Source: Microbacterium sp. Se63.02b (lineage in GTDB: Bacteria; Actinomycetota; Actinomycetes; Actinomycetales; Microbacteriaceae). From it: a stretch of 64,000 nucleotides of DNA. The DNA is taken from contig NZ_CP050453.1 of the NCBI RefSeq assembly GCF_014171575.1, positions 1,674,001-1,738,000 of the forward strand. Reading direction: 5' to 3'. Each line of letters opens with the position of its first letter. The first letter of the stretch is position 1. Positions 48,974-60,814 of this stretch are shown piece by piece. The position numbers and the translations under genes are program-made. The notes under the pieces were generated by a model. That model was given only the letters and a program-made list of their open reading frames with translations. It ran no database searches and was not told where the DNA came from.

Positions 48974-49768
48974 ATGGACTCCTACTACGACTCGGGATAC
49001 CTTGCCGCGATAGCCGGCATCGTCATCTTCAGCATCATCATCGGGCTCGCGGGATACGTCCTGGGGTCGCTCTTCTACATGAAGATCTTCCAGAAGGCCG
49101 GTGTGCAGGGTGCCTGGCGCGCCTGGGTGCCGGTGTACAACGTGATGATCTTCTTCAAGCTGGGTGATCTGAGCCCCTGGCTCGTGCTCTACGGCATCGC
49201 CGGCACTGCCCTGCTGGGCTGGATCGGAGTCGGCTACGTCTTCTCGGTCGCACTCGCCGTCCTCTCCGCCATCGCGGCGTGGCGAGTCGGGCTCAAGCTC
49301 CAGAAGGATGCGGTCTGGGTCATCCTCTACGTCTTCCTGAGCATCGTCTGGCTCGGCATCAACGCCTTCGACAAGTCCCGCTGGAACCCGAACATCCAGC
49401 CGGCCTCCTGGGCGGGCAACGGATTCCTCGGTGACCGCACGGTGTGGGACGGCATCCCCGCTCAGCCTTCGGCCGCTGCGCCGCAGGCGGGGTACGGCGC
49501 TCCTCAGGGCTACGCTCCTCCGGCGCCGCAGGGCTACGCACCACCGGCACAGCCCGGCTATGCTCCGCCCGCGCAGCCTGGCTACGCACCGCCCGCAGGC
49601 CCCGCGGCCCCCGCGACCGGCGCCCCGGTTCCCCCGGTTCCGCCGACCACCCCGCCGGCACCTCCGGCCACGCCGCCCGCGCCTCCGACGGCGCCTCCGG
49701 CTGCACCGCCGACCACGCCTCCCGCGCCTCCGGCACCGCCGAGCGACCCGACGCAGCCGCCGGCCTGA
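48974..49768 (+). CDS. DUF5684-like membrane protein with Pro-rich repeat tail
   Basis: 264 residues. Membrane segments lie at about residues 10-35, 65-85 and 88-135. The interhelical motif QKAGVQGAWRAWVPVYNVMIFFKL is typical of DUF5684-type proteins. From about residue 165 the chain becomes Pro/Ala-rich with GYAPP-type repeats (GYAPPAPQ, GYAPPAQP), ending in a long Pro-rich stretch. The tail is probably cytoplasmic or wall-spanning and may bind partners; the function is unknown. ATG has GGAGGGG upstream. Confidence 0.75.
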   Translation: MDSYYDSGYLAAIAGIVIFSIIIGLAGYVLGSLFYMKIFQKAGVQGAWRAWVPVYNVMIFFKLGDLSPWLVLYGIAGTALLGWIGVGYVFSVALAVLSAIAAWRVGLKLQKDAVWVILYVFLSIVWLGINAFDKSRWNPNIQPASWAGNGFLGDRTVWDGIPAQPSAAAPQAGYGAPQGYAPPAPQGYAPPAQPGYAPPAQPGYAPPAGPAAPATGAPVPPVPPTTPPAPPATPPAPPTAPPAAPPTTPPAPPAPPSDPTQPPA

Positions 49769-50923: not shown

Positions 50924-51721
50924 GTGGCTGAGACGAAGACGCATCGCGTCACGGTTGCGCAGCGCCCTCTGCTGCTGTCCTGGGCGGGGGTCACCGACCT
51001 GGGTCGGCGACGCGAGACGAATCAGGACGCCTTTCTCGCAGAGTTCCCGCTGTTCATCGTCGCCGACGGCATGGGTGGTCACGCGGGCGGCGAGATCGCG
51101 AGTCGCAGCACGGTCGAGCGGCTGCAGGCCGTCGTATCCTCGGGCGAGGTGAGCGGCCCGTCGATCGAGAAGGCTCTCGAGCTGGCCGTAGGAGACATCG
51201 CGGATCACCCGGAGACGACCGACGAGGGCACGGGGACGACACTCACCGGTGTCTACTTCCACACCGAGGGCGAAGACGCGCAGTGGGTGGCGCTGAACAT
51301 CGGCGATTCGCGGGTCTACCTGCTCCGGGATGAGCGCCTCGTGCAGGTGACGACCGATCATTCGGTGGTCCAGGAACTGATCACGGCGGGCAAGCTCAGC
51401 CCCGAGGAGGCCGAAGGGCATCCGTACAGCAACGTGATCACCCGCGCGGTCGGCGCGAGCGAGTTGACCGCGCCCGACTACGTCACGATCGACGTGCGAC
51501 CGGGCGACCGGTTCGTCATCTGCTCCGACGGGCTCACGAAGGAGCTCACCGACTACGGCATCCAGCACTTCCTCCGGGAGAACAGCGATCCGAGCGACGG
51601 TGTGGATGCGATGTTGGCTGCGGCGCTCGAGAACGGGGGCCGCGACAACGTGACTCTCATCATCGTCCAGGTCTCGGACGAAGACGACTCATCCTCCCCA
51701 GACGAAGACACCGCGAAATAG
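50924..51721 (+). CDS. PP2C-type Ser/Thr protein phosphatase
   Basis: 265 residues. PP2C metal-binding motifs are present: TNQDAF, VADGMGGHAGGEIAS, GTTLTG, NIGDSRVYLLR, SDGLTKEL and GGRDNVTLI. It dephosphorylates Ser/Thr phosphoproteins with Mn2+ or Mg2+. GTG at 50924 has GGAGG 6 nt upstream and is preferred; an upstream in-frame GTG at 50873 lies only 2 nt after a -10 box (TACGAT, 50865-50870), so it would precede the mRNA start. It precedes the FtsK-like gene by 57 nt, a phosphatase-secretion ATPase pairing seen in T7SS-like loci. Confidence 0.92.
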   Translation: MAETKTHRVTVAQRPLLLSWAGVTDLGRRRETNQDAFLAEFPLFIVADGMGGHAGGEIASRSTVERLQAVVSSGEVSGPSIEKALELAVGDIADHPETTDEGTGTTLTGVYFHTEGEDAQWVALNIGDSRVYLLRDERLVQVTTDHSVVQELITAGKLSPEEAEGHPYSNVITRAVGASELTAPDYVTIDVRPGDRFVICSDGLTKELTDYGIQHFLRENSDPSDGVDAMLAAALENGGRDNVTLIIVQVSDEDDSSSPDEDTAK

Positions 51722-51778
51722 CGGTTCGGCGCTGTGGACAGCGCCGGATCACCGCACGCGTTGCGATCCACTGGATGG

Positions 51779-54533
51779 ATGGAATCCCTTCCCATCGTGC
51801 TCCCGACGGCCCCTGCCCCGTCGCGCCGTGCTCCTCTGCCGATCCTCGCGCCGGTCGTTCCTGTGCTCGGCGGAGTCGTGCTGTGGCTGGTGACCGGCTC
51901 GGCGTTCGCGCTCTGCTTCGCGGCTCTGGGGCCCCTGATGATGGGGGCCTCGCTGCTGGATGCGGCTCGTGCCCGGCGTCGCGAGCGCCGCGACGGCGAT
52001 GCGCGGGCCGAGCGGGAGTGGGCGTTCGCCGAGGCCGAGTTGAGGCGTCGGCACGGTGACGAGCGGACGGCGCTGCGGCTTCGGCACCCTGACGCGGCTG
52101 CGTGTCTCGCGCAACCGCCGCTGCGAAGCGCGGAGCCGCCCGCATCGGCGACGCCTGTGGTCGTCGGCGCCGGAAGCATCTCGAGCAGCGTCCGCTGCAG
52201 CGGTGGCGATGATCGACGAGGGAGAGAATTCCGAGAGCGATGCTCCGTCCTCGATGCGGCTCCGGTCGTGGTGCCGCTCGGCGGTGGAATCTGCCTGCGG
52301 GGAGCGCAACCGCTGATCGCCGCCGCTGCACGAGCACTGGTCATCCAGCTCGGTATGCGCTTCAGCCCGGCGCAGCTGTCGTTGCGGGGACGGGCCTCGA
52401 TGCGTGCGGCGTGGGGCGGCGCCGCATGCGGCGCGCGGAGGTCGAGGCAGGTTCGTCCTCGCGATCGACTCGAGCGAGATGGCGCGCACGGAGGCGGATG
52501 CCGTGATCTGGCTCGCGCCCGCTGACGCGGAGGTTCCGGAGGGCGTCACAACGGTGATCGACATCATCGAACCGTGCAGGGCGCGTCTGCGCACGCTGCA
52601 CGACGCGACCGAGATCGCCGTCGAGTGTCTCTCCTTCGCGCAGACGGGAGCGATCGTGGAAGACCTCGCCGTGTCGGAGGATGCCGCCGATGTCCTCCCC
52701 GACGCCGTGTCGCTGGACGAGCTGGAGCAGCCGGACCCGAGGAGCGGCTTGAGCGCGGCGATCGGACGAAGCGCACGTGGGCAGGTCGTGCTCGACATCG
52801 TGGAGGACGGACCGCACGCGATCGTGACGGGCACGACCGGCACAGGTAAGAGCGAACTGCTGGTCAGCTGGGTCACGGCCATCGCCGCACGCAATGGACC
52901 AGACAGGGTCGTCTTCGTCCTGGCCGACTTCAAGGGCGGCACGACATTCGAGCCGCTGCGCGGTCTGAGGCAGGTCGCCGCCGTCATCACCGATCTCGAC
53001 GAGGAAGGCGCACGGCGCGGGGTCTCCAGCCTCACCGCAGAGCTGCGACGTCGTGAGAGCGTCCTCACCGCGGCCGGCGCGCGAGACGTGGGCGAAGTCG
53101 ACATGCCTCGACTGGTGATCGTCGTCGATGAGTTCGCCGCGCTGCTCTCGGAACACCCCGACCTGGGAGCGGTGTTCACCGATGTCGCGGCTCGGGGCCG
53201 TGCGCTCGGCATGCATCTGATCCTCGGCACCCAGCGGGCAGCGGGCGTCGTGCGGGATGCGCTGGCTGCCAACTGCCCCCTCCGCATCAGCCTTCGTGTC
53301 GGCGATCCCAGCGACAGTCGCCTCATGATCGGATCGGAGGCGGCTTCCGCGCTCCCCGGCGGCGCGGACTCGCGCGGACTGGCGCTCGTGCGGCGACCGG
53401 TCGACACCGAGCCCGTCGCGATGCGTGTGGCATTGACGGGTGCTGCCGACCTTCGCACTGCGGAACAGCGTTGGGCGACGGAGGCGCCCCCGCGCAGTCC
53501 CTGGCTCGCTGCCCTTCCCGCGTGCGTGCCCCTCACCGACCTGGTCGTCTCCGACGCAGCCGGGGCGGAGACCCTTGTGCTCGGGCGTTCCGACGACCCC
53601 GCGCATCAGGCCCAGCCTGCCGTGACCCTGCGCTGCGGGGAAGAGAGGGGAGTGCTGTTCCTCGGTATGCCGGGGTCTGGGCGTACGGCGGCTCTGCGTG
53701 CTCTGGCAGCGCAACGCGCGGATGCGAGATGGGTGCCGAGAGACCCGGAAGAGGCATGGGACCTCACCGTCGGGTGGGCGACCGGGAGCCGACGCGCTCC
53801 GTCGTTGGTGCTCTCAGACGACATGGATGCGCTCATCTCCCGGCTGCCGCCAGAGTACGCACAGCAGTTCGCACAGTACTGGGAAATGCTCCTGCGGAAC
53901 GGGGAAGGAACGACGTTCGCGGTGACGGCGGCCAGGGCGTCAGGGACTCTGGGAAGGGTGCTCGACCTGATTCCGCAGCGGGCGCTGCTGAGGATGCCGA
54001 CGCGCGTCGACCATCTCGCCGCCGGCGGAGACGCCTCGTCCTTCGTGCATGATCGCGTGCCGGGGCGCGCGAGAATCGGTGATCGCGAGGTGCAAGTGGC
54101 CTGGGTGCCCGAGGATCCCGACGGCTCTGACGGCCCCGACAGCCGCGACGAAGAGGCGACCGCGGCGGCGTGGACCCCGTCCTACGCGGTGACGGGCGTC
54201 GTCACTGCCGGCGCTCGATCCGTCGCGGCTCGGTTGCGCAAGGCGCATCCGTCCTTCGAGGTGATCGTCGCGGGGACGGAAGCCGTCGAACCGGAGCGCC
54301 CCTGCCTCGTCGTGGGAGACGGGGAGACCTGGCAGCGCAACTGGTCTTCCTGGCAGCGCATCCGCGCAGACGGCGAGATCGTGATCCGCGCGGAACAATC
54401 CGTAGACCTCCGGCAGCTTGCCGGTGTACGCGAACTTCCGCCCTATGCGCGTCCCCATGCAGGTCGAGCCTGGGCGATCGTCGGCGCGGGTTCGCCCCGA
54501 CGGGTCATCATCCCGGAGCTGATGCCCCGATGA
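51779..54533 (+). CDS. EccC/FtsK-SpoIIIE-like tandem ATPase (two apparent frameshifts)
   Basis: 918 residues after restoring one base at each of 52386-52389 and 52450-52451. N-terminal membrane segments are near residues 15-60. The first ATPase domain has Walker A GTTGTGKSELL, Walker B RLVIVVDEFAALL, and the FtsK segment VFVLADFKGG. A second, degenerate domain has GMPGSGRTAAL and SLVLSDDMDAL. This order matches EccC of type VII secretion rather than DNA-pumping FtsK, since no gamma DNA-reading domain is seen. No WXG100, EccB/D/E or FHA gene is within the window. A GTG at 51734 is an alternative start. The role may be protein export. Confidence 0.82.
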
Positions 54534-54573: not shown

Positions 54574-55568
54574 TCAGATCCCGGTCGCCGGTCGGATGAC
54601 GCCGACTTCGGCACCTCCGCCGCTGATTGTGAGAGGGAGCGCTTCGCGGAGAGCCGACACATCGGAGTCGCTCAACCCGCCCGCGCGTGCGAGGAGAGTG
54701 GCGGCGACGATCGTGGATGCGCGGGTGGCGCCGTCGAGCATCTTCAACGCCACGGTCGTTCCGTTCGGAGCGACCATCACCATGACGCCCTCGGCGCCGT
54801 GCTTGGCGAAGACTCCGAGCTTCTCGATGGCGACGGTGTCGGGGCGGCCGGGCCCCTCGATGGTCCACGGGTGCTCGCGCACGGCACGCACCAGGGAACC
54901 CGCGACGCGATGGAGTGCGAACGGCGAACGGTCAGACGCCGTGCCGACGCGGTGCAGTGCACGTGCCAGGCCGGTGAGAGTCATCGCGAACACCGGGGCG
55001 CCGCAGCCGTCTATCGCGGTGTGCGCGACCTTCTCTCCGTGAGCCGCTCGACGACCTCGCGGATGTGGGCCTGAAGCGGATGCGCGGGGTCGAGGTATCC
55101 ATCGGTCGGCCACCCGGTCGCGACGCACGCCCGCAGCATTGCGGCGTGCTTCCCCGAGCAGTTCATCCGTACGCGACTCGGCTCTCCGTGCTCGCGGACG
55201 AGATCATCGCGTGTCGAGGAGTCGCTCGGCCACGACGCAGGACACCCGAGGGCGTCCTCGGTCAGCCCGCCCTCCGTCAGGATGTCCCGCACGACGGCGG
55301 CATGCCGGTCGGTGCCGACGTGGCTCGCCGTGGAGATCGCGAGCTGCTCGCCTTCGAGGACCGCGCCGGCCGTGATGCACGCGATCGCCTGGAGGGGCTT
55401 GAGGCTCGAGCGCGGCAGGATCAGAGCGTCGGTGTTGCCGTGGCGGGCCACGATCTCTCCCTCGGACGAGAGGACCACGGCAGCACCGGCGTGACGGGAT
55501 TCGATGAAACCGCTCCGCTCGACGACGGCGAGTTCCACGGAATCCTGAACGGTGAGAGTCTCCAGCAC
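54574..55568 (-). CDS. Asparaginase II-type amidohydrolase, AnsA-like (apparent frameshift)
   Basis: 331 residues after restoring one base near 55038. This is the asparaginase family of pfam06089 type: SSLKPLQAIA, ISTASHVGTDRHAAVV, MNCSGKHAAMLRAC and AIDGCGAPVFAMTL are its conserved segments, distinct from the classical bacterial type I/II enzymes. It should hydrolyse L-asparagine to aspartate. GTG start with TAGAGT (55575-55580) ending 6 nt upstream, a leaderless pattern. It is convergent to the FtsK-like gene (40 nt gap). Confidence 0.88.
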
Positions 55569-55635
55569 CCGTCAACTCTAGCGTCGGGCGTCCGATGGCT
55601 CACCTCGGGCCCGTCGCCCCTGGCAGACTGTCGTC

Positions 55636-56130
55636 ATGGCAGAGTCGACCCCCCGCGCCCTCGGCGAACATCACTATGCGCTCACCTCCGTGTGGACCGG
55701 CAACACGGGTGCCGGCACGAGCGGCTACCGCGACTACCGTCGCGACGTGACGATCGAGGTAGCAGGCAAGCCCGAGCTCCTGGCCTCGGCAGACAAGCCG
55801 TTCCGCGGAGATCCGTCGCGGTGGAATCCCGAGGACCTCCTGCTCGCCTCGCTCTCGGAGTGCCACCTGCTGTCCTATCTGCACGCGTGCGTCACCGCGG
55901 GCGTCGTCGTGGTGTCGTACCGTGACCACGCGAGCGGCATGATGCGCGAAGACGGCAAGGGCGGAGGGGCCTTCGTCGAGGTGATGCTGCGGCCCGAGGT
56001 GGTCGTCGCGGAGGCATCGATGATCGAGGCGGCAGAGCGCGCCCACGCGACGGCGAACGAGTGGTGCTTCATCGCGAACTCGATGAACTTCCCGGTGCAC
56101 CACCAGGCGACGGTCAGCGCAGTCGGCTGA
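55636..56130 (+). CDS. OsmC/Ohr-family peroxidase-like protein
   Basis: 164 residues. The two conserved cysteines of OsmC proteins are present: Cys76 in LASLSECHLLSYL and Cys144 in NEWCFIANS. The family reduces organic peroxides with these thiols. CAGACT ends 6 nt before the ATG, a probable leaderless start. It runs divergently from the asparaginase gene; its 3' end overlaps the corrected plsC end by 17 nt. Confidence 0.88.
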   Translation: MAESTPRALGEHHYALTSVWTGNTGAGTSGYRDYRRDVTIEVAGKPELLASADKPFRGDPSRWNPEDLLLASLSECHLLSYLHACVTAGVVVVSYRDHASGMMREDGKGGGAFVEVMLRPEVVVAEASMIEAAERAHATANEWCFIANSMNFPVHHQATVSAVG

Positions 56131-56939
56131 GTCCCGCGTCGGGTCAGCGACGTTCGTGGGGAGCGCCTGCTTGATCTTCTCGATCGTGCCCTGTGCCGGC
56201 GCCTCGTTGTAGGTGCCCGCGAGCTCCTGCCCGGACAGCCCGTGGATCGCGGCCATGATCTCATCGGTGGCGAGGCGGCGCGCGCGCCCGCTCGTCGCCG
56301 GTCCGTGCGGCGACAGGTCGAGGGCTCTCCGAAGCGGACCGTGATGCGCTCCTTGAGCGTGGGAACCTTGGCGCCCACCGGCATCACCGTGTCCGTGCCG
56401 ATCAGCCCCACGGGGACGACGGGAGCGCCGGTCTGCAGCGCGAGGAACGCCACCCCGGTGCGGCCCTTGTACAGTCGCCCGTCCGTGGACCGCGTGCCCT
56501 CCGGATACAAGGCGACCGCGAGACCTTCGTCGAGCAGTTGGCGCTGCAGGTCGAGGGCATCCAATGCCGCCTGGCCCGCTCCGCGGCGAACCGGGATCGC
56601 ACCGATCGACTCGAAGAACGTCTTGCTCATCCACCCCTTGAAGCCGGTGCCTTCGAAGTACGACGACTTGGCGAGGAAGTGAACCGGACGAGGCGCCGCG
56701 ACCGGGATCGCGATCGAGTCGATGAAGGACAGGTGGTTGCTCGCGAAGATGACGGGTCCGGTCAGCGGGACGTTGTCCCGGCCCTCGATCCGCGGACGGT
56801 ACACGGTCCTCGCGAGGGGAGTGATGAGGCTCCGCCCCAGGGTGTACGCGAGTCCGGCATGACGGGGCTTCGCAGTCCCGGTCGACGAGGATGCCTCTTC
56901 TGACGAGGGTTCGGGCTCGACGGACGGCGCAGAGGTCAT
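56114..56939 (-). CDS. Acylglycerophosphate acyltransferase, PlsC family (two apparent frameshifts)
   Basis: 275 residues after restoring one base at each of 56322-56324 and 56141-56143. The acyltransferase motifs are block I NHLSFID (His69-xxxx-Asp74), block II IPVRRG, block III YPEGTRS and block IV VVPVGLIG. It transfers acyl chains to lysophosphatidic acid or a related lipid at the membrane. The N-terminus is Ser/Glu-rich. TAGCCT (56946-56951) ends 6 nt before the ATG. The second correction sets the stop at 56114-56116; without it the frame runs on antisense to OsmC. Confidence 0.87.
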
Positions 56940-57062
56940 CAGAGCAGGCTACTCCCGGATCCATGCCCTCGTGGGAATGAAGATTCGCGCCGCGCCTCCC
57001 AGCGAGGGCAAAGGGGTATGGGGGAGGATGGAGTGTCCCGCCCGCGATCCCGAGGTCTCACT

Positions 57063-58019
57063 GTGCGCAAGCGTCCGCTCATCGTCCTGTCCACCGTCGC
57101 CGCGGCGACCTTCCTGCTGGCGGGCTGCGCCGGAAGCTCCGCGCCGTCGAGTTCCGGCACGCCGAGCCCGTCCGCATCGAGTGCCTGCGCTCTGGACGCG
57201 CAGCCCGGTGCGACCTCTGATGCGGTGAAGGTCGAGGGTGAAGGGGCGGACACCAAGGTGACCGTCCCGGCCGATGCCGCATTCGCGGGCGTCGAGCGCA
57301 CGGTGGTGTCGGAGGGCGATGGCGAAGAGGTCTACGTCAACGACCTGGTCTCGGTCGAGTACCAGATCGTCGACGCGACCACCAACGAGGTCGTCGACTC
57401 CTCAGCGCGGGGTGAGGACGGTCTCCTCCCCGTCCTCCTCGACACCAACCAGTCGTCCCTTTTCGTCGCGGCGCTCGAGTGCGAGCCCGTCGGCTCGCGA
57501 ATCGTGCTGTCACTCCCCGGCAGTGCGTTGGGCGAGGGGCAGAACAACGTCGTCGTCTACGCCCAGGCCGTGGAGCACCTGCCCGAGGTGGCGACCGGTA
57601 CCCCCGTCGACCCCACGCCGGGCATGCCGACCGTCGAACTCGACGACAAGGGTGCGCCGACAGTCACGATCCCCGACGGAGATGCGCCGGCCGAGACGAA
57701 GGTCGCCGTCCTCAAGCAGGGTGACGGGCCGACCGTCGGATCCGGCGACCTCGTCGTCGTGCAGTACCTCGGTGTCAAGTGGTCAGACGGCACGGAGTTC
57801 GACTCCAGCTGGAGCCGCGACGCCGCGCCCGCGCAGTTCCAGACCACGGGTGTCGTCGCGGGCTTCCAGAAGGCTCTGGAGGGGCAGAAGGTCGGCTCGC
57901 AGGTGGTCGTCGTGATGCCGCCGTCCGACGGCTACGGAGCGAGCGAAGGCCACGAACTCCAGAAGGAGAGCCTCGTGTTCGTGGTCGACATCCTGGCGAC
58001 CACCGCCGTCCAGCAGTAA
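57063..58019 (+). CDS. FKBP-type peptidyl-prolyl isomerase lipoprotein
   Basis: 318 residues. The lipoprotein signal ends in LLAGC with the lipidated Cys22, followed by a Ser/Pro-rich linker. Two FKBP-like units follow: a first, weaker one around residues 85-190 and a C-terminal FKBP domain with GSGDLVVVQYLGVKWSDGTEFDSSW, VVAGFQKALEGQKVGSQ and PPSDGYG. It assists folding of exported proteins outside the membrane. GTG 57063 is chosen because the signal peptide begins there; ATG 57018 would add 15 residues. Confidence 0.88.
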   Translation: MRKRPLIVLSTVAAATFLLAGCAGSSAPSSSGTPSPSASSACALDAQPGATSDAVKVEGEGADTKVTVPADAAFAGVERTVVSEGDGEEVYVNDLVSVEYQIVDATTNEVVDSSARGEDGLLPVLLDTNQSSLFVAALECEPVGSRIVLSLPGSALGEGQNNVVVYAQAVEHLPEVATGTPVDPTPGMPTVELDDKGAPTVTIPDGDAPAETKVAVLKQGDGPTVGSGDLVVVQYLGVKWSDGTEFDSSWSRDAAPAQFQTTGVVAGFQKALEGQKVGSQVVVVMPPSDGYGASEGHELQKESLVFVVDILATTAVQQ

Positions 58020-58042
58020 GAGGGCCGGGCCGGGCCGTGTCC

Positions 58043-58048
58043 TAGGCT
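58043..58048 (+). promoter_or_regulatory. -10 box (TAGGCT), leaderless pattern, before dxr
   Basis: TAGGCT ends 6 nt before the dxr ATG at 58055, with no Shine-Dalgarno. Confidence 0.5.
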
Positions 58049-58054
58049 GGCGTT

Positions 58055-59135
58055 ATGCGTCGCGTCATCGTCCTCGGCTCCACCGGCTCCATCGGCACCC
58101 AGGCGCTGGACGTGATCCGCGCCAATCCTCGAAGGTTCGAACTTGTCGGCCTGGCCGCCGGCTCCAACGCCGCGATGCTGGCGGAGCAGGCGGCGCAGTT
58201 CCACGTCGAAGACACCGCGCTCGGCGCCGAAGAGGCCGAGCAGCTGGTCCGCGATGTGGACGCAGACGTGGTGCTCAACGCGATCACCGGCTCGATCGGT
58301 CTCGGCTCGACGCTCGCGGCGTTGAAGGCCGGGCGGACGCTGGCGCTCGCGAACAAGGAGTCGCTGATCGTCGGCGGTGACCTCGTGTTGGCCGCTGCGG
58401 CTCCCGATCAGATCGTTCCGGTCGACTCCGAGCACTCCGCTCTCGCGCAGGCTCTGCGTGCCGGCACCCACGCCGAGGTGCGACGCCTCGTCGTGACGGC
58501 GTCGGGTGGTCCCTTCCGCGGACGCAGCCGGGCGGACCTCGTCGACGTCACTCCCGCGGAGGCACTCGCGCACCCGACCTGGGACATGGGGCGCATGGTC
58601 ACCACCAACTCCGCGACCCTGGTCAACAAGGGTCTCGAGGTCATCGAGGCGCACCTGCTCTTCGACGTGCCGTATGACGACATCGAGGTCGTCGTGCATC
58701 CCCAGTCGATCGTGCACTCCATGGTCGAGTTCATCGACGGGTCGACCATCGCCCAGGCATCGCCACCCGATATGAGGCTGCCGATCTCCTTGGGCCTGGA
58801 CTGGCCGCATCGCGTCGGCGGGGTCGGACGGCCACTCGACTGGACCAGCGCGACCTCCTGGACCTTCGAGCCCCTCGACGGTGAGGCGTTCCCCTCCGTC
58901 GCACTCGCGAAAGCCGTCGGGCGTGCCGGGGCACCTTCCCCGCGGTCTACAACGCAGCCAACGAGCAGGCGGTCGACGCCTTCCACGAGGGCGATTGCCC
59001 TTCCTCGGCATCGTCGACACGATCGCTCGGGTGGTCGACGCCCACGAGGCGCCGGATGCACTGACGGTCGAGACGCTCGCCGCCGCCGAAGCCTGGGCGC
59101 GCACGACGGCCGATCGGATGATCGCGGCGCGTTGA
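58055..59135 (+). CDS. dxr: 1-deoxy-D-xylulose 5-phosphate reductoisomerase (two apparent frameshifts)
   Basis: 360 residues after restoring one base at 58928-58931 and one near 58990. The NADPH motif GSTGSIGTQ begins at residue 8. [30 protein letters not shown] and the flexible HPTWDMG loop are the catalytic elements of the non-mevalonate isoprenoid pathway. The restored end reads through [13 protein letters not shown]. Both losses are single bases next to G runs. The gene is convergent to murE. Confidence 0.94.
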
Positions 59136-59164
59136 TCCACGCGCCGGGCGTGTGACGCGGCGAC

Positions 59165-59200
59165 CACCGAGCGGTCAGTCCAGCACCGAGTGGTCAGTCC
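59165..59200. repeat. Tandem 17-bp repeat at the murE 3' end
   Basis: CACCGAGCGGTCAGTCC (59165-59181) and CACCGAGTGGTCAGTCC (59184-59200) differ at one base and have a 19-nt period. The second copy contains the murE stop codon (TCA on this strand, 59194-59196). The first copy carries the same stop sequence outside the gene. Confidence 0.7.
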
Positions 59201-60814
59201 TCGTCGGGGTAGGGGACGGGCCACTGCGAGTCGGGGACAGGCCAGCCGGCGGCGCGCAGCGCTCTGCGCGCGAGCTCTCGCGCCGAGTACGGCGTGCGCA
59301 TACCGCGGATGTCGCGGTAGTCCTGATGCCCCGGGCCAGCCCAGAGGATCGCGTCGCCGTCGCCGACCAGGCCGACGGCCGTGACGATGGCGTTCTCTGG
59401 AGGCGATGCCTCGTGGATCTCCGCATCCGGTCGTGCCTTGCGCGCGCCCTCGACGAGCGTCGCACGGATCGAAGCCGGGTCTTCGAAGCGCGGGTGGTGG
59501 TCGGTGACGACGAGGATGTCGCTTCCCTCCACCGCGGTGCGTGCCATGTCGAAGCGCTTGCTCGCGTCACGGTCGCCGTCCGCGCCGAACAGCATGAGCA
59601 CCTTGCCCGGGGTGACGCGGCGGACGGCGGCGAGCGTCTTCTCGAACGCGTCGGGCGAGTGGCCGAAGTCGACGAAGACCGCCGGTCCCCGCTCGCCGGA
59701 TACGAGCTGCGTGCGGCCGGGCAGGTAGGCGCGGATGCCGCCGTCACGGGTGAGCGCATCGACGATCCGCGTCCACTCGTAGCCGCCCTCGAGCAGCATC
59801 ACGATCGCGAGTGCCGCGTTGGCGGCCATGTGAGGCCGATCACCGGCACCGTCGTCGTGAGCGATCCCTCCGGGCCGGTCATGGTGAAGGTCGTCCCGGC
59901 GGCGCGCTCGTCGTCGATCACGACGACCCAGTCGGCGGCGGAGGCCGATTCGGGGTCTGCTGCGATCGACGGCGTACCGACGGTAACGACGGGCACCTCG
60001 GCGCGATCGACGACGATCGCTCCGGATGGGGAGTCGAGGCAGATGACGCCGCGCTTCGCACGATCGGGGCGGAACAGCGGCAGCTTCGCCTCGAAGTACT
60101 CTTCCATGTCGGCGTAGTCGTCGAGGTGGTCGTGGCTCAGATTGGTGAAGCCCGCGACGTCGAAGCGGATCCCGTCGACCCGGTGGCGTGACAGCGCCTG
60201 CGCGCTGACCTCGACCGCGACGGCCTCGACCTCGCGCTCGCGCATCAGAGCCAGCAGCGCATGCATTTCTGAGGCCTCGGGCGTCGTCAGACGGGAGACG
60301 ATGACCTCTCCGGCGATGTGCCGTTCGGCGGTGGACGAGAGCCCGGAGACGACGCCGATCTGGTCGAGGATCCCCGCAAGGAGATGGGAGACGCTGGTCT
60401 TGCCGTTGGTGCCCGTGGTCGCGAGCAGCAGGGGAGCGGGTCGTCTGCTCCGGTGCCGTACACCCAGGCGCTCAGGTCGCCGAGCACGCCGCGCGGATCA
60501 TCGACCACGATGATCGGGAGTCCCGTGGGTTCCGCGATCAGCGCCCCCGGCTCATCGGTGATGACAGCGACGGCGCCCTTCTCCGCGGCTGTTCCGGCGA
60601 AGTCCGCGCCGTGGCGGTTGACGCCCTGGATCGCGACGAACGCTTCTCCTGGTCGGAGATCCGCCGTGGCGAGGGTGATCCCGGAGAGCGAGACCCCTTC
60701 GATGTCGCCGCGCACGGCGCGGGCGAAGCGGGAGGCGAGTTCGGACAGCTGACGCCGGGGCGGGTTCGCGGGGCGGAGCACGGGAGGCAGGCTCGGTTGT
60801 TGTTCAATCGACAT
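59194..60814 (-). CDS. murE: UDP-N-acetylmuramoyl-tripeptide synthetase-type Mur ligase, MurE-like (two apparent frameshifts)
   Basis: 540 residues after restoring one base at 60431-60434 and one at 59834-59835. The N-terminal UDP-binding domain contains GITLATADLRPGEAFVA. The ATP loop is TTGTNGKTS. The Mg/carbamate region includes NLSHDHLDDYADMEEY, and the C-terminal ligase domain has VDFGHSPDAFEKTL. The substrate motif, DNPR in diaminopimelate-adding enzymes, reads DHHPR here (in VTDHHPRFEDP). It adds the third residue of the peptidoglycan stem peptide; which diamine or amino acid is unclear. It lies outside a division cell-wall cluster, so a second MurE elsewhere cannot be excluded. Confidence 0.87.

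What the first reader, a model, noticed from the sequence alone, without database searches (positions are those of the whole stretch)
50924..54533. PP2C phosphatase paired with an EccC-like tandem ATPase, but no visible WXG100 or other T7SS genes
Seen: a two-domain ATPase with Walker A/B in each half (GTTGTGKSELL and GMPGSGRTAAL) and a PP2C protein 57 nt before it. EccC ATPases belong to type VII secretion, and phosphatases accompany some actinobacterial clusters. The absence of the other components suggests an orphan or minimal system, or a split cluster. The ATPase has two corrected breaks.
Basis: partly seen in the sequence, partly recalled or inferred. Interest (0 to 1): 0.55.

Follow-up and report, generated by a model that had tools for sequence, protein, structure and literature searches.

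The report
Stripped-down, two-locus type VII secretion motor
A Microbacterium genome carries a solitary, shortened relative of the motor of type VII protein secretion; a single small WXG100 protein gene beside groEL, far away on the chromosome, is largely present or absent together with it in related genomes, which points to a very small export system whose two parts sit in different places.

Summary
In detail: a PP2C (50924-51721) and, 57 nt on, a two-TM EccC-like ATPase (51779-54533, frame-broken near 52390-52422, probably by sequencing error), with no other T7SS gene among the neighbours scanned. The ATPase is not FtsK: a relative's model matches EccC from the membrane part to the C-terminus. 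D1 is intact in 79 of 79 relatives; D2's P-loop is degenerate and D3 reduced. The genome also has a kinase/PP2C/FHA/EccC/WXG100 cluster at 0.62-0.64 Mb, yet three relatives showed no other EccC.

The probable partner is a single-gene, 95-aa WXG100 convergent with groEL, 1.2 Mb away (WxG and YxxxD/E in 27 of 27). It occurs in 27 of 28 Microbacterium genomes with the ATPase and 0 of 7 without. Of 398 family genomes 246 have both, 101 neither, 2 only the ATPase, 49 only the WXG100; 39 of those 49 hold a shorter or more divergent EccC-like ATPase, in one reduced-genome genus 318-560 aa (the shortest: N-terminal hydrophobic segment plus D1). PP2C is separable. Best reading: a lone-EccC/WXG100 export pair on two loci, a variant we did not find described. 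Export itself is untested.

The parts
50924..51721 (+). PP2C (PPM) Ser/Thr phosphatase, Stp1/PrpC-like
   Evidence: Pfam PF13672 57.2 bits, NCBIfam NF033484 210.1 bits; a same-strand PP2C in 79 of the 80 best-matching relatives' loci, the other one starting at a contig edge
51779..54533 (+). lone EccC-like membrane ATPase (frame-broken in this assembly)
   Evidence: NCBIfam TIGR03928 186.2 and TIGR03924 174.9 bits, both under curated cut-offs; phmmer to EccC 4nh0 9.7e-50; 77 of 79 relatives read 890-1019 aa
51842..51958 (+). two N-terminal transmembrane helices (approximate)
   Evidence: hydrophobic segments in the frame that begins at 51779; helices 22-39 and 42-102 in the model of the orthologue L203
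52390..52422 (+). stretch in which the reading frame changes
   Evidence: intact orthologues match frame +2 up to 52390 and frame +3 from 52422; three-frame translation
52830..52853 (+). D1 Walker A GTTGTGKS
   Evidence: GxTGxGKSE in 79 of 79 relatives
53112..53132 (+). D1 Walker B LVIVVDE
   Evidence: DE in 79 of 79 relatives
53664..53687 (+). degenerate D2 P-loop GMPGSGRT
   Evidence: P-loop lysine in only 33 of 79 relatives
53805..53828 (+). D2 Walker-B-like LVLSDDMD
   Evidence: first D in 79 of 79, second D in 78 of 79

Best explanation
The ATPase is the motor of a small type-VII-like export system whose genes are split over two loci. Its two N-terminal helices anchor it in the membrane and its D1 ring hydrolyses ATP. 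Its substrate is a homodimer of the 95-aa WXG100 protein encoded beside groEL (G000:C1:2942883-2943170), recognised through the C-terminal YxxxD/E signal and pushed across the membrane. Shown: gene content, EccC-type architecture of an orthologue's model, intact D1 site, WXG100 and signal motifs, parallel presence and absence, short forms in reduced genomes. Inferred: that the two proteins touch, that the WXG100 is exported, that it is a homodimer, and that no further essential subunit exists. The PP2C beside the motor is a conserved neighbour in Microbacterium that may tune it or merely share the operon.
For: EccC architecture: model residues 2-307 align with the EccC N-terminal membrane, stalk and first NTPase part of ESX-3/ESX-5 (Z 15.7-16.6) and 313-925 with EccC 4nh0 414-1315 (Z 34.7, 587 aligned); FtsK chains align 263-269 residues, ending at 583-584. 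Own D1 clade, 100/98. One WXG100 match (the groEL one) and one EccC-like gene besides FtsK in G003, G004 and G032. WXG100 orthologue in 27 of 28 ATPase-bearing and 0 of 7 ATPase-lacking Microbacterium. Of 398 family genomes: both 246, ATPase only 2 (75% and 88% complete), WXG100 only 49, neither 101; a shorter or more divergent EccC-like ATPase in 39 of the 49, three of them as fragments, and none of that kind among the printed matches of 22 controls drawn from the 101. WXG100 status needs 6 changes on an FtsK tree of 40 genomes, at least 3 forced by well-supported branches. WxG and YxxxD/E in 27 of 27; convergent with groEL in 27 of 27.
Against: No experiment. The two genes are not linked. 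Ten of the 49 WXG100-only genomes showed no short ATPase, among them three near-complete ones of genus g121 and G489 (97% complete). G011, G012 and G019 have the ATPase and only the groEL WXG100 by PF06013, but also another EccC-like gene, so which motor would serve it is open there. D3, which binds the signal in EccC (recalled), is reduced here and absent in the shortest forms. Outside the family the groEL-type WXG100 occurs with other EccC genes. Presence thresholds were chosen after seeing the values; 28 weak WXG100 hits were counted as absent. EccB/D/E and EsaB-like genes were not searched genome-wide.
Confidence: 0.64

Rival explanations
1. The ATPase is an accessory or backup motor of the genome's clustered T7SS and handles that cluster's substrates; the groEL-linked WXG100 is one of them.
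For: The same genome has a cluster with kinase, a PP2C 42% identical to the window's, FHA proteins, EccC and three WXG100s. G011, G012 and G019 have another EccC but only the groEL WXG100 by PF06013.
Against: G003, G004 and G032 keep ATPase and WXG100 without another EccC match; all seven genus genomes without the ATPase have another EccC-like gene yet no groEL-type WXG100; own D1 clade.
Confidence: 0.14
2. ATPase and WXG100 are each old, vertically inherited genes lost in the same lineages by coincidence or through a shared change of lifestyle; they do not act together.
For: Within the genus the seven double-negatives form one clade, hence one event (98/96); the label is clustered on the FtsK tree.
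Against: Several separate changes; in g152 two of nine genomes lack both while seven keep both; only 2 of 248 ATPase-positive genomes lack the WXG100; both kept in 1.2-1.4 Mb genomes.
Confidence: 0.14
3. A DNA translocase or an anti-phage ATPase of the FtsK/HerA class.
For: Pfam FtsK_SpoIIIE; PADLOC mad8 4e-29 and SspH 7.7e-21; FtsK motor Z about 30.
Against: T7SS models outscore FtsK (186.2 and 174.9 against 53.4 bits); the membrane and stalk part matches EccC; a separate FtsK is present; housekeeping neighbours.
Confidence: 0.05
4. PP2C and ATPase are an obligate phospho-regulated pair, as in T7SS types with a PPM phosphatase.
For: A same-strand PP2C in 79 of 80 best-matching loci; its tblastn match ends 5-251 nt before the ATPase frame's first start codon in 76 of the 78 loci where both were placed. 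PPM phosphatases occur in T7SSc, e and f (PMC11217815).
Against: PP2C retained in 6 of 6 loci without the ATPase; not found in 8 of 11 loci of other genera; no kinase hit at 6 Microbacterium and 11 other loci.
Confidence: 0.12

Closest known systems
EccC of ESX / T7SSa (4nh0, ESX-3, ESX-5)
   Same: two TM helices, stalk, first NTPase-like domain, active D1
   Different: D2 P-loop degenerate, D3 reduced, score under the curated EccC cut-off, no other T7SS gene among scanned neighbours, WXG100 at another locus
T7SSc-T7SSj (Garrett et al. 2024, PMC11217815; abstract, Methods, sections 7 and 9, Discussion and found passages read)
   Same: EccC/EssC-type ATPase plus one WXG100; PPM phosphatases in some types
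   Different: those are defined by ATPase phylogeny and gene neighbourhood, their ATPases have four C-terminal NTPase domains, and a kinase or FHA protein is often present. A word search of its main text found no 'Microbacterium', 'orphan' or 'minimal'
The genome's own clustered T7SS (G000:C1 about 622-642 kb)
   Same: PP2C plus EccC plus WXG100
   Different: has kinase, FHA and RDD proteins and WXG100s in the cluster; D1 in another clade
Mono-cistronic sagEsxA-like WXG100 (PMC3935865, 2014; abstract and found passages)
   Same: single WXG100 gene, predicted homodimer
   Different: the paper states that all actinobacterial WXG100 genes lie in bi-cistronic operons; no second PF06013 match lies at the groEL-linked gene in the matches printed
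Lone EccCs of other families of the order (L194-L202, L313, L315, L317, L319, L320)
   Same: no kinase, PP2C or WXG100 hit nearby in 13 of 14; five of them group with the family clade
   Different: 11 of 14 have frames of 1,284-1,517 aa; 5 of the 9 read by eye lie near WhiB- or SigF/RsbW-like genes

Membership tests
EccC/EssC ATPase | two N-terminal TM helices, stalk and DUF NTPase domain | tested here: met
   AF2 model of orthologue L203, pLDDT 88.3; residues 2-307 on ESX-3/ESX-5 EccC, Z 15.7-16.6
EccC/EssC ATPase | active D1 (Walker A and B) | tested here: met
   79 of 79 relatives
EccC/EssC ATPase | full set of C-terminal NTPase domains (D2, D3) | tested here: not met
   D2 lysine in 33 of 79; only about 135 residues after D2 in the model
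NCBIfam TIGR03924 EccCa | score over curated cut-off 509.15 | tested here: not met
   174.9 bits for the window piece, 186.3 and 188.3 for two intact orthologues
T7SSa (ESX) | eccB, eccD, eccE, mycP in one cluster with eccC | tested here: not met
   none among 17 window ORFs or pieces and the neighbours of relatives scanned by Pfam
T7SSa (ESX) | these components anywhere in the genome | not tested
   the 12 genome searches went to the distribution of WXG100, ATPase and marker genes
T7SSd/e | FHA-bearing TsxC and a kinase in one cluster | tested here: not met
   no FHA domain in two intact orthologues, no kinase hit at 6 Microbacterium loci
FtsK/SpoIIIE DNA translocase | groups with FtsK | tested here: not met
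   genome has its own FtsK; D1 tree with one FtsK row as outgroup, and EccC-type N-terminus
WXG100 (partner protein) | Pfam PF06013 over cut-off, WxG, about 100 aa | tested here: met
   57.6 bits against 27.3; WxG in 27 of 27, 95 aa
T7SS substrate | C-terminal YxxxD/E (motif recalled) | tested here: met
   27 of 27
T7SS substrate | export dependent on the ATPase | not testable with these tools
   needs a deletion strain

The most novel reading that the evidence does not exclude
A lone EccC-type motor and one homodimeric WXG100, encoded far apart, form a complete type VII exporter across Microbacteriaceae. In genomes of 1.2-1.4 Mb it has been pared down to an N-terminal membrane segment plus one D1 domain (about 320-420 aa) and a WXG100 protein, which would be the smallest known T7SS and would show that EccB/D/E, D2 and D3 are dispensable.
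Probability: 0.35. Interest if true: 0.85.

Novelty: new variant of a known kind. Interest (0 to 1): 0.6.

Why it matters
It would turn a much-studied multi-subunit machine into a two-gene problem and make the question 'what is the core of type VII secretion' directly testable. [quoted passage not shown] identity inferred from length alone), carries the WXG100 (1.1e-27) and an EccC-like frame of 1,026 aa.

Tried and rejected
Rejected: an obligate PP2C-ATPase pair. Rejected: FtsK or defence ATPase. Considered: the frame breaks as a pseudogene. Neighbouring genes for isoprenoid and cell-wall synthesis (DXR, a Mur ligase) are broken too, so I treat the breaks as probable assembly error; the clustered EccC reads 1,064 aa against about 1,500 in several relatives. 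Not resolved: ten WXG100-only genomes without a short ATPase (G438, G463, G489, G516, G561, G574, G593, G669, G700, G791). Some are incomplete (G463 showed not even FtsK), and G561's second match was not printed. Literature: no title or abstract start listed describes an EccC/WXG100 pair split this way; the library holds open-access PMC papers only, and six papers were opened. One notes a second eccC elsewhere in the genome of Actinotignum schaalii, without a partner (PMC5720513, passages); one a stationary-phase WXG100 in Bifidobacterium longum (PMC9415070, passages); one lists T7SS proteins in Rathayibacter without detail (PMC5552033, passage).
Full report
Setting. The window is G000:C1:1674001-1738000 of a one-contig genome of 4.08 Mb. 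The 80 closest named loci are 78 Microbacterium and 2 actinomycetotal MAGs. The locus lies downstream of the atp operon: atpA-atpG-atpD-atpC, YaaA-like, a weakly DUF5684-like protein, aldo/keto reductase, PP2C, ATPase, then asparaginase, OsmC, acyltransferase, FKBP and DXR. The order is much the same in most of the 28 loci compared, with insertions in some.

The two genes. PP2C at 50924-51721 and ATPase at 51779-54533, 57 nt apart, same strand. The ATPase changes frame between 52390 and 52422. Of 15 window genes matched by one relative's locus, five are frame-broken, including DXR and a Mur ligase, and the genome's completeness is 92 against 99-100 for most relatives. Sequencing error is therefore the likely cause, though not proved.

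What the ATPase is. NCBIfam scores EssC 186.2, EccCa 174.9, EccCb 136.1 and FtsK 53.4 bits, all under curated cut-offs. In an AlphaFold2 model of an intact orthologue (L203, M. oxydans, 37-row alignment, pLDDT 88.3), residues 2-307 align with the membrane, stalk and first NTPase region of EccC in ESX-3 and ESX-5 (Z 15.7-16.6), and 313-925 with the EccC cytoplasmic structure 4nh0 (Z 34.7, 587 aligned); FtsK chains reach Z about 30 over 263-269 residues, ending at 583-584. D1 is intact in 79 of 79 readable relatives; D2's P-loop lysine is kept in 33 of 79. A D1 tree of 54 rows puts all 23 family members in one clade (100/98). It groups with five lone EccCs of other families (85/83) and stands apart from two further EccC clades and from G034's EccC, which is unresolved (some long branches, and one join with the outgroup flagged as doubtful). 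Kinase and PP2C hits lie beside most members of one of those two clades, not beside the other.

The genome's other T7SS. PF01580 finds three FtsK/SpoIIIE-type proteins over the cut-off: FtsK at 1.81 Mb, an EccC at 0.63 Mb and the window's. Around the second lie a kinase, a PP2C 42% identical to the window's, an FHA/YscD-type protein, an RDD/FHA protein and three WXG100 copies (254 of 255 bases alike in both pairs compared). It does not settle the matter, because G004 and G032 (one contig each) and G003 (94% complete, 120 contigs) have the window-type ATPase, FtsK, no other match at 1e-3, and a single WXG100 match.

The candidate partner. The fourth WXG100 of the genome is at 2.94 Mb, convergent with groEL. 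It has orthologues at E of 1e-16 or better in 27 of the 28 genus genomes that hold the ATPase; the exception, G023, is 83% complete in 500 contigs, and its groEL was not found either. None of the 7 genomes without the ATPase has one; four of them show weaker hits (7e-10 to 3e-7), three of which lie within about 10 kb of an EccC gene. All 27 are 95 aa with WxG and YxxxD/E, and all are convergent with groEL. The seven double-negatives are one clade on a groEL tree (98/96), so this is one event. In the six of them whose atp locus could be read, the PP2C remains (69-71% identity) and is followed by an amino-acid permease in place of the ATPase (74-79% identical to the one that follows the ATPase in L064). 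Against a one-to-one match: G011, G012 and G019 have the ATPase, a second EccC-like gene and only the groEL WXG100 by PF06013.

Family-wide test. In 398 family genomes (85 genera) the ATPase C-half profile was called present at 1e-20 or better and the WXG100 profile at 1e-19 or better. Both 246, ATPase only 2 (G484, 75% complete; G722, 88%), WXG100 only 49, neither 101 (counted from hand-typed lists; 28 weak WXG100 hits, none better than 1e-13, count as absent). The thresholds were set after looking at the values. Thirty-nine of the 49 have an EccC-like ATPase distinct from FtsK, in frames of 164-1,026 aa; in G667, G733 and G792 it is a fragment. Ten do not show one. The 22 controls show, in the printed matches, only long EccCs (1,324-1,728 aa; in G675 one of 1,413 and one in broken frames) or only FtsK. 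Genomes are not independent. On an FtsK tree of 40 of them the negatives need 6 changes (bootstrap 5-7; at least 3 forced by well-supported branches); that tree lacks most large-genome positives, and three of its positives (G438, G489, G593) have no ATPase found. Within g152, G635 and G675 lack both while the other seven keep both.

Shortened forms. In ten g118 genomes the open frames (stop to stop) with the D1 match are 318, 338, 338, 324, 413, 418, 359, 549, 560 and 420 aa; the shorter ones show one or two hydrophobic windows at the N-terminus followed by a single D1 with Walker-A- and Walker-B-like motifs. The 549- and 560-aa forms keep a second P-loop-like stretch. No WXG100 of this type was found in the 16 small-genome ATPase loci fetched.

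Beyond the family. The WXG100 profile matches 321 of 396 genomes of the order at 1e-10; of 20 such loci read, 10 have groEL in the stretch fetched, some stretches being cut by contig ends. The ATPase C-half profile gives nothing better than 2.5e-22 outside the family, and the printed matches there are partial. In other families lone EccCs occur, 13 of 14 without kinase, PP2C or WXG100 hits nearby; L199 has a WXG100-like gene.

The PP2C. A same-strand PP2C is present in 79 of 80 loci, which were the 80 best matches and so are selected for closeness. In 11 loci of other genera it was found in 3, up to about 1 kb away. It is therefore a neighbour by descent in this branch; a regulatory role is possible but not supported by co-inheritance.

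Mechanism. Shown: components, architecture, motifs, co-occurrence. Inferred: membrane insertion, D1-driven export of a WXG100 homodimer, and signal recognition by D1 or D2 because D3 is reduced. [quoted passage not shown] whether an EccD- or EsaB-like protein exists in these genomes was not tested.

Novelty. Garrett et al. 2024 define T7SSc-j by ATPase phylogeny and gene neighbourhood. PMC3935865 states that all actinobacterial WXG100 genes are bi-cistronic, which the groEL-linked gene contradicts. The searches listed under Tried and rejected showed no description of this pair.

Noticed in passing
L017 and L018 (G000:C1:618000-650000): Clustered T7SS with kinase, PP2C, FHA/YscD-type and RDD/FHA proteins, an EccC shorter than in relatives and three WXG100 copies that are almost identical.
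   Followed up: partly
window 54577-60814: Asparaginase, acyltransferase, DXR and a Mur ligase gene are all frame-broken against relatives, pointing to indel errors in this assembly.
   Followed up: partly
L063, L064, L066, L068, L070-L073: One or two MsbA-like ABC transporter genes lie upstream of the PP2C in several Microbacterium genomes.
   Followed up: no
L194, L195, L196, L198, L201: Lone EccC-like genes of other families lie near WhiB-like or SigF/RsbW-like genes (judged by eye).
   Followed up: no
L283-L302: The groEL-type WXG100 is widespread in the order, with WxG and a YxxxE-like end by eye in the 20 loci read, but its motor outside the family is not identified.
   Followed up: partly
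window 48974-49768: Weakly DUF5684-like membrane protein with a long Pro/Ala-rich tail, conserved at the locus.
   Followed up: no
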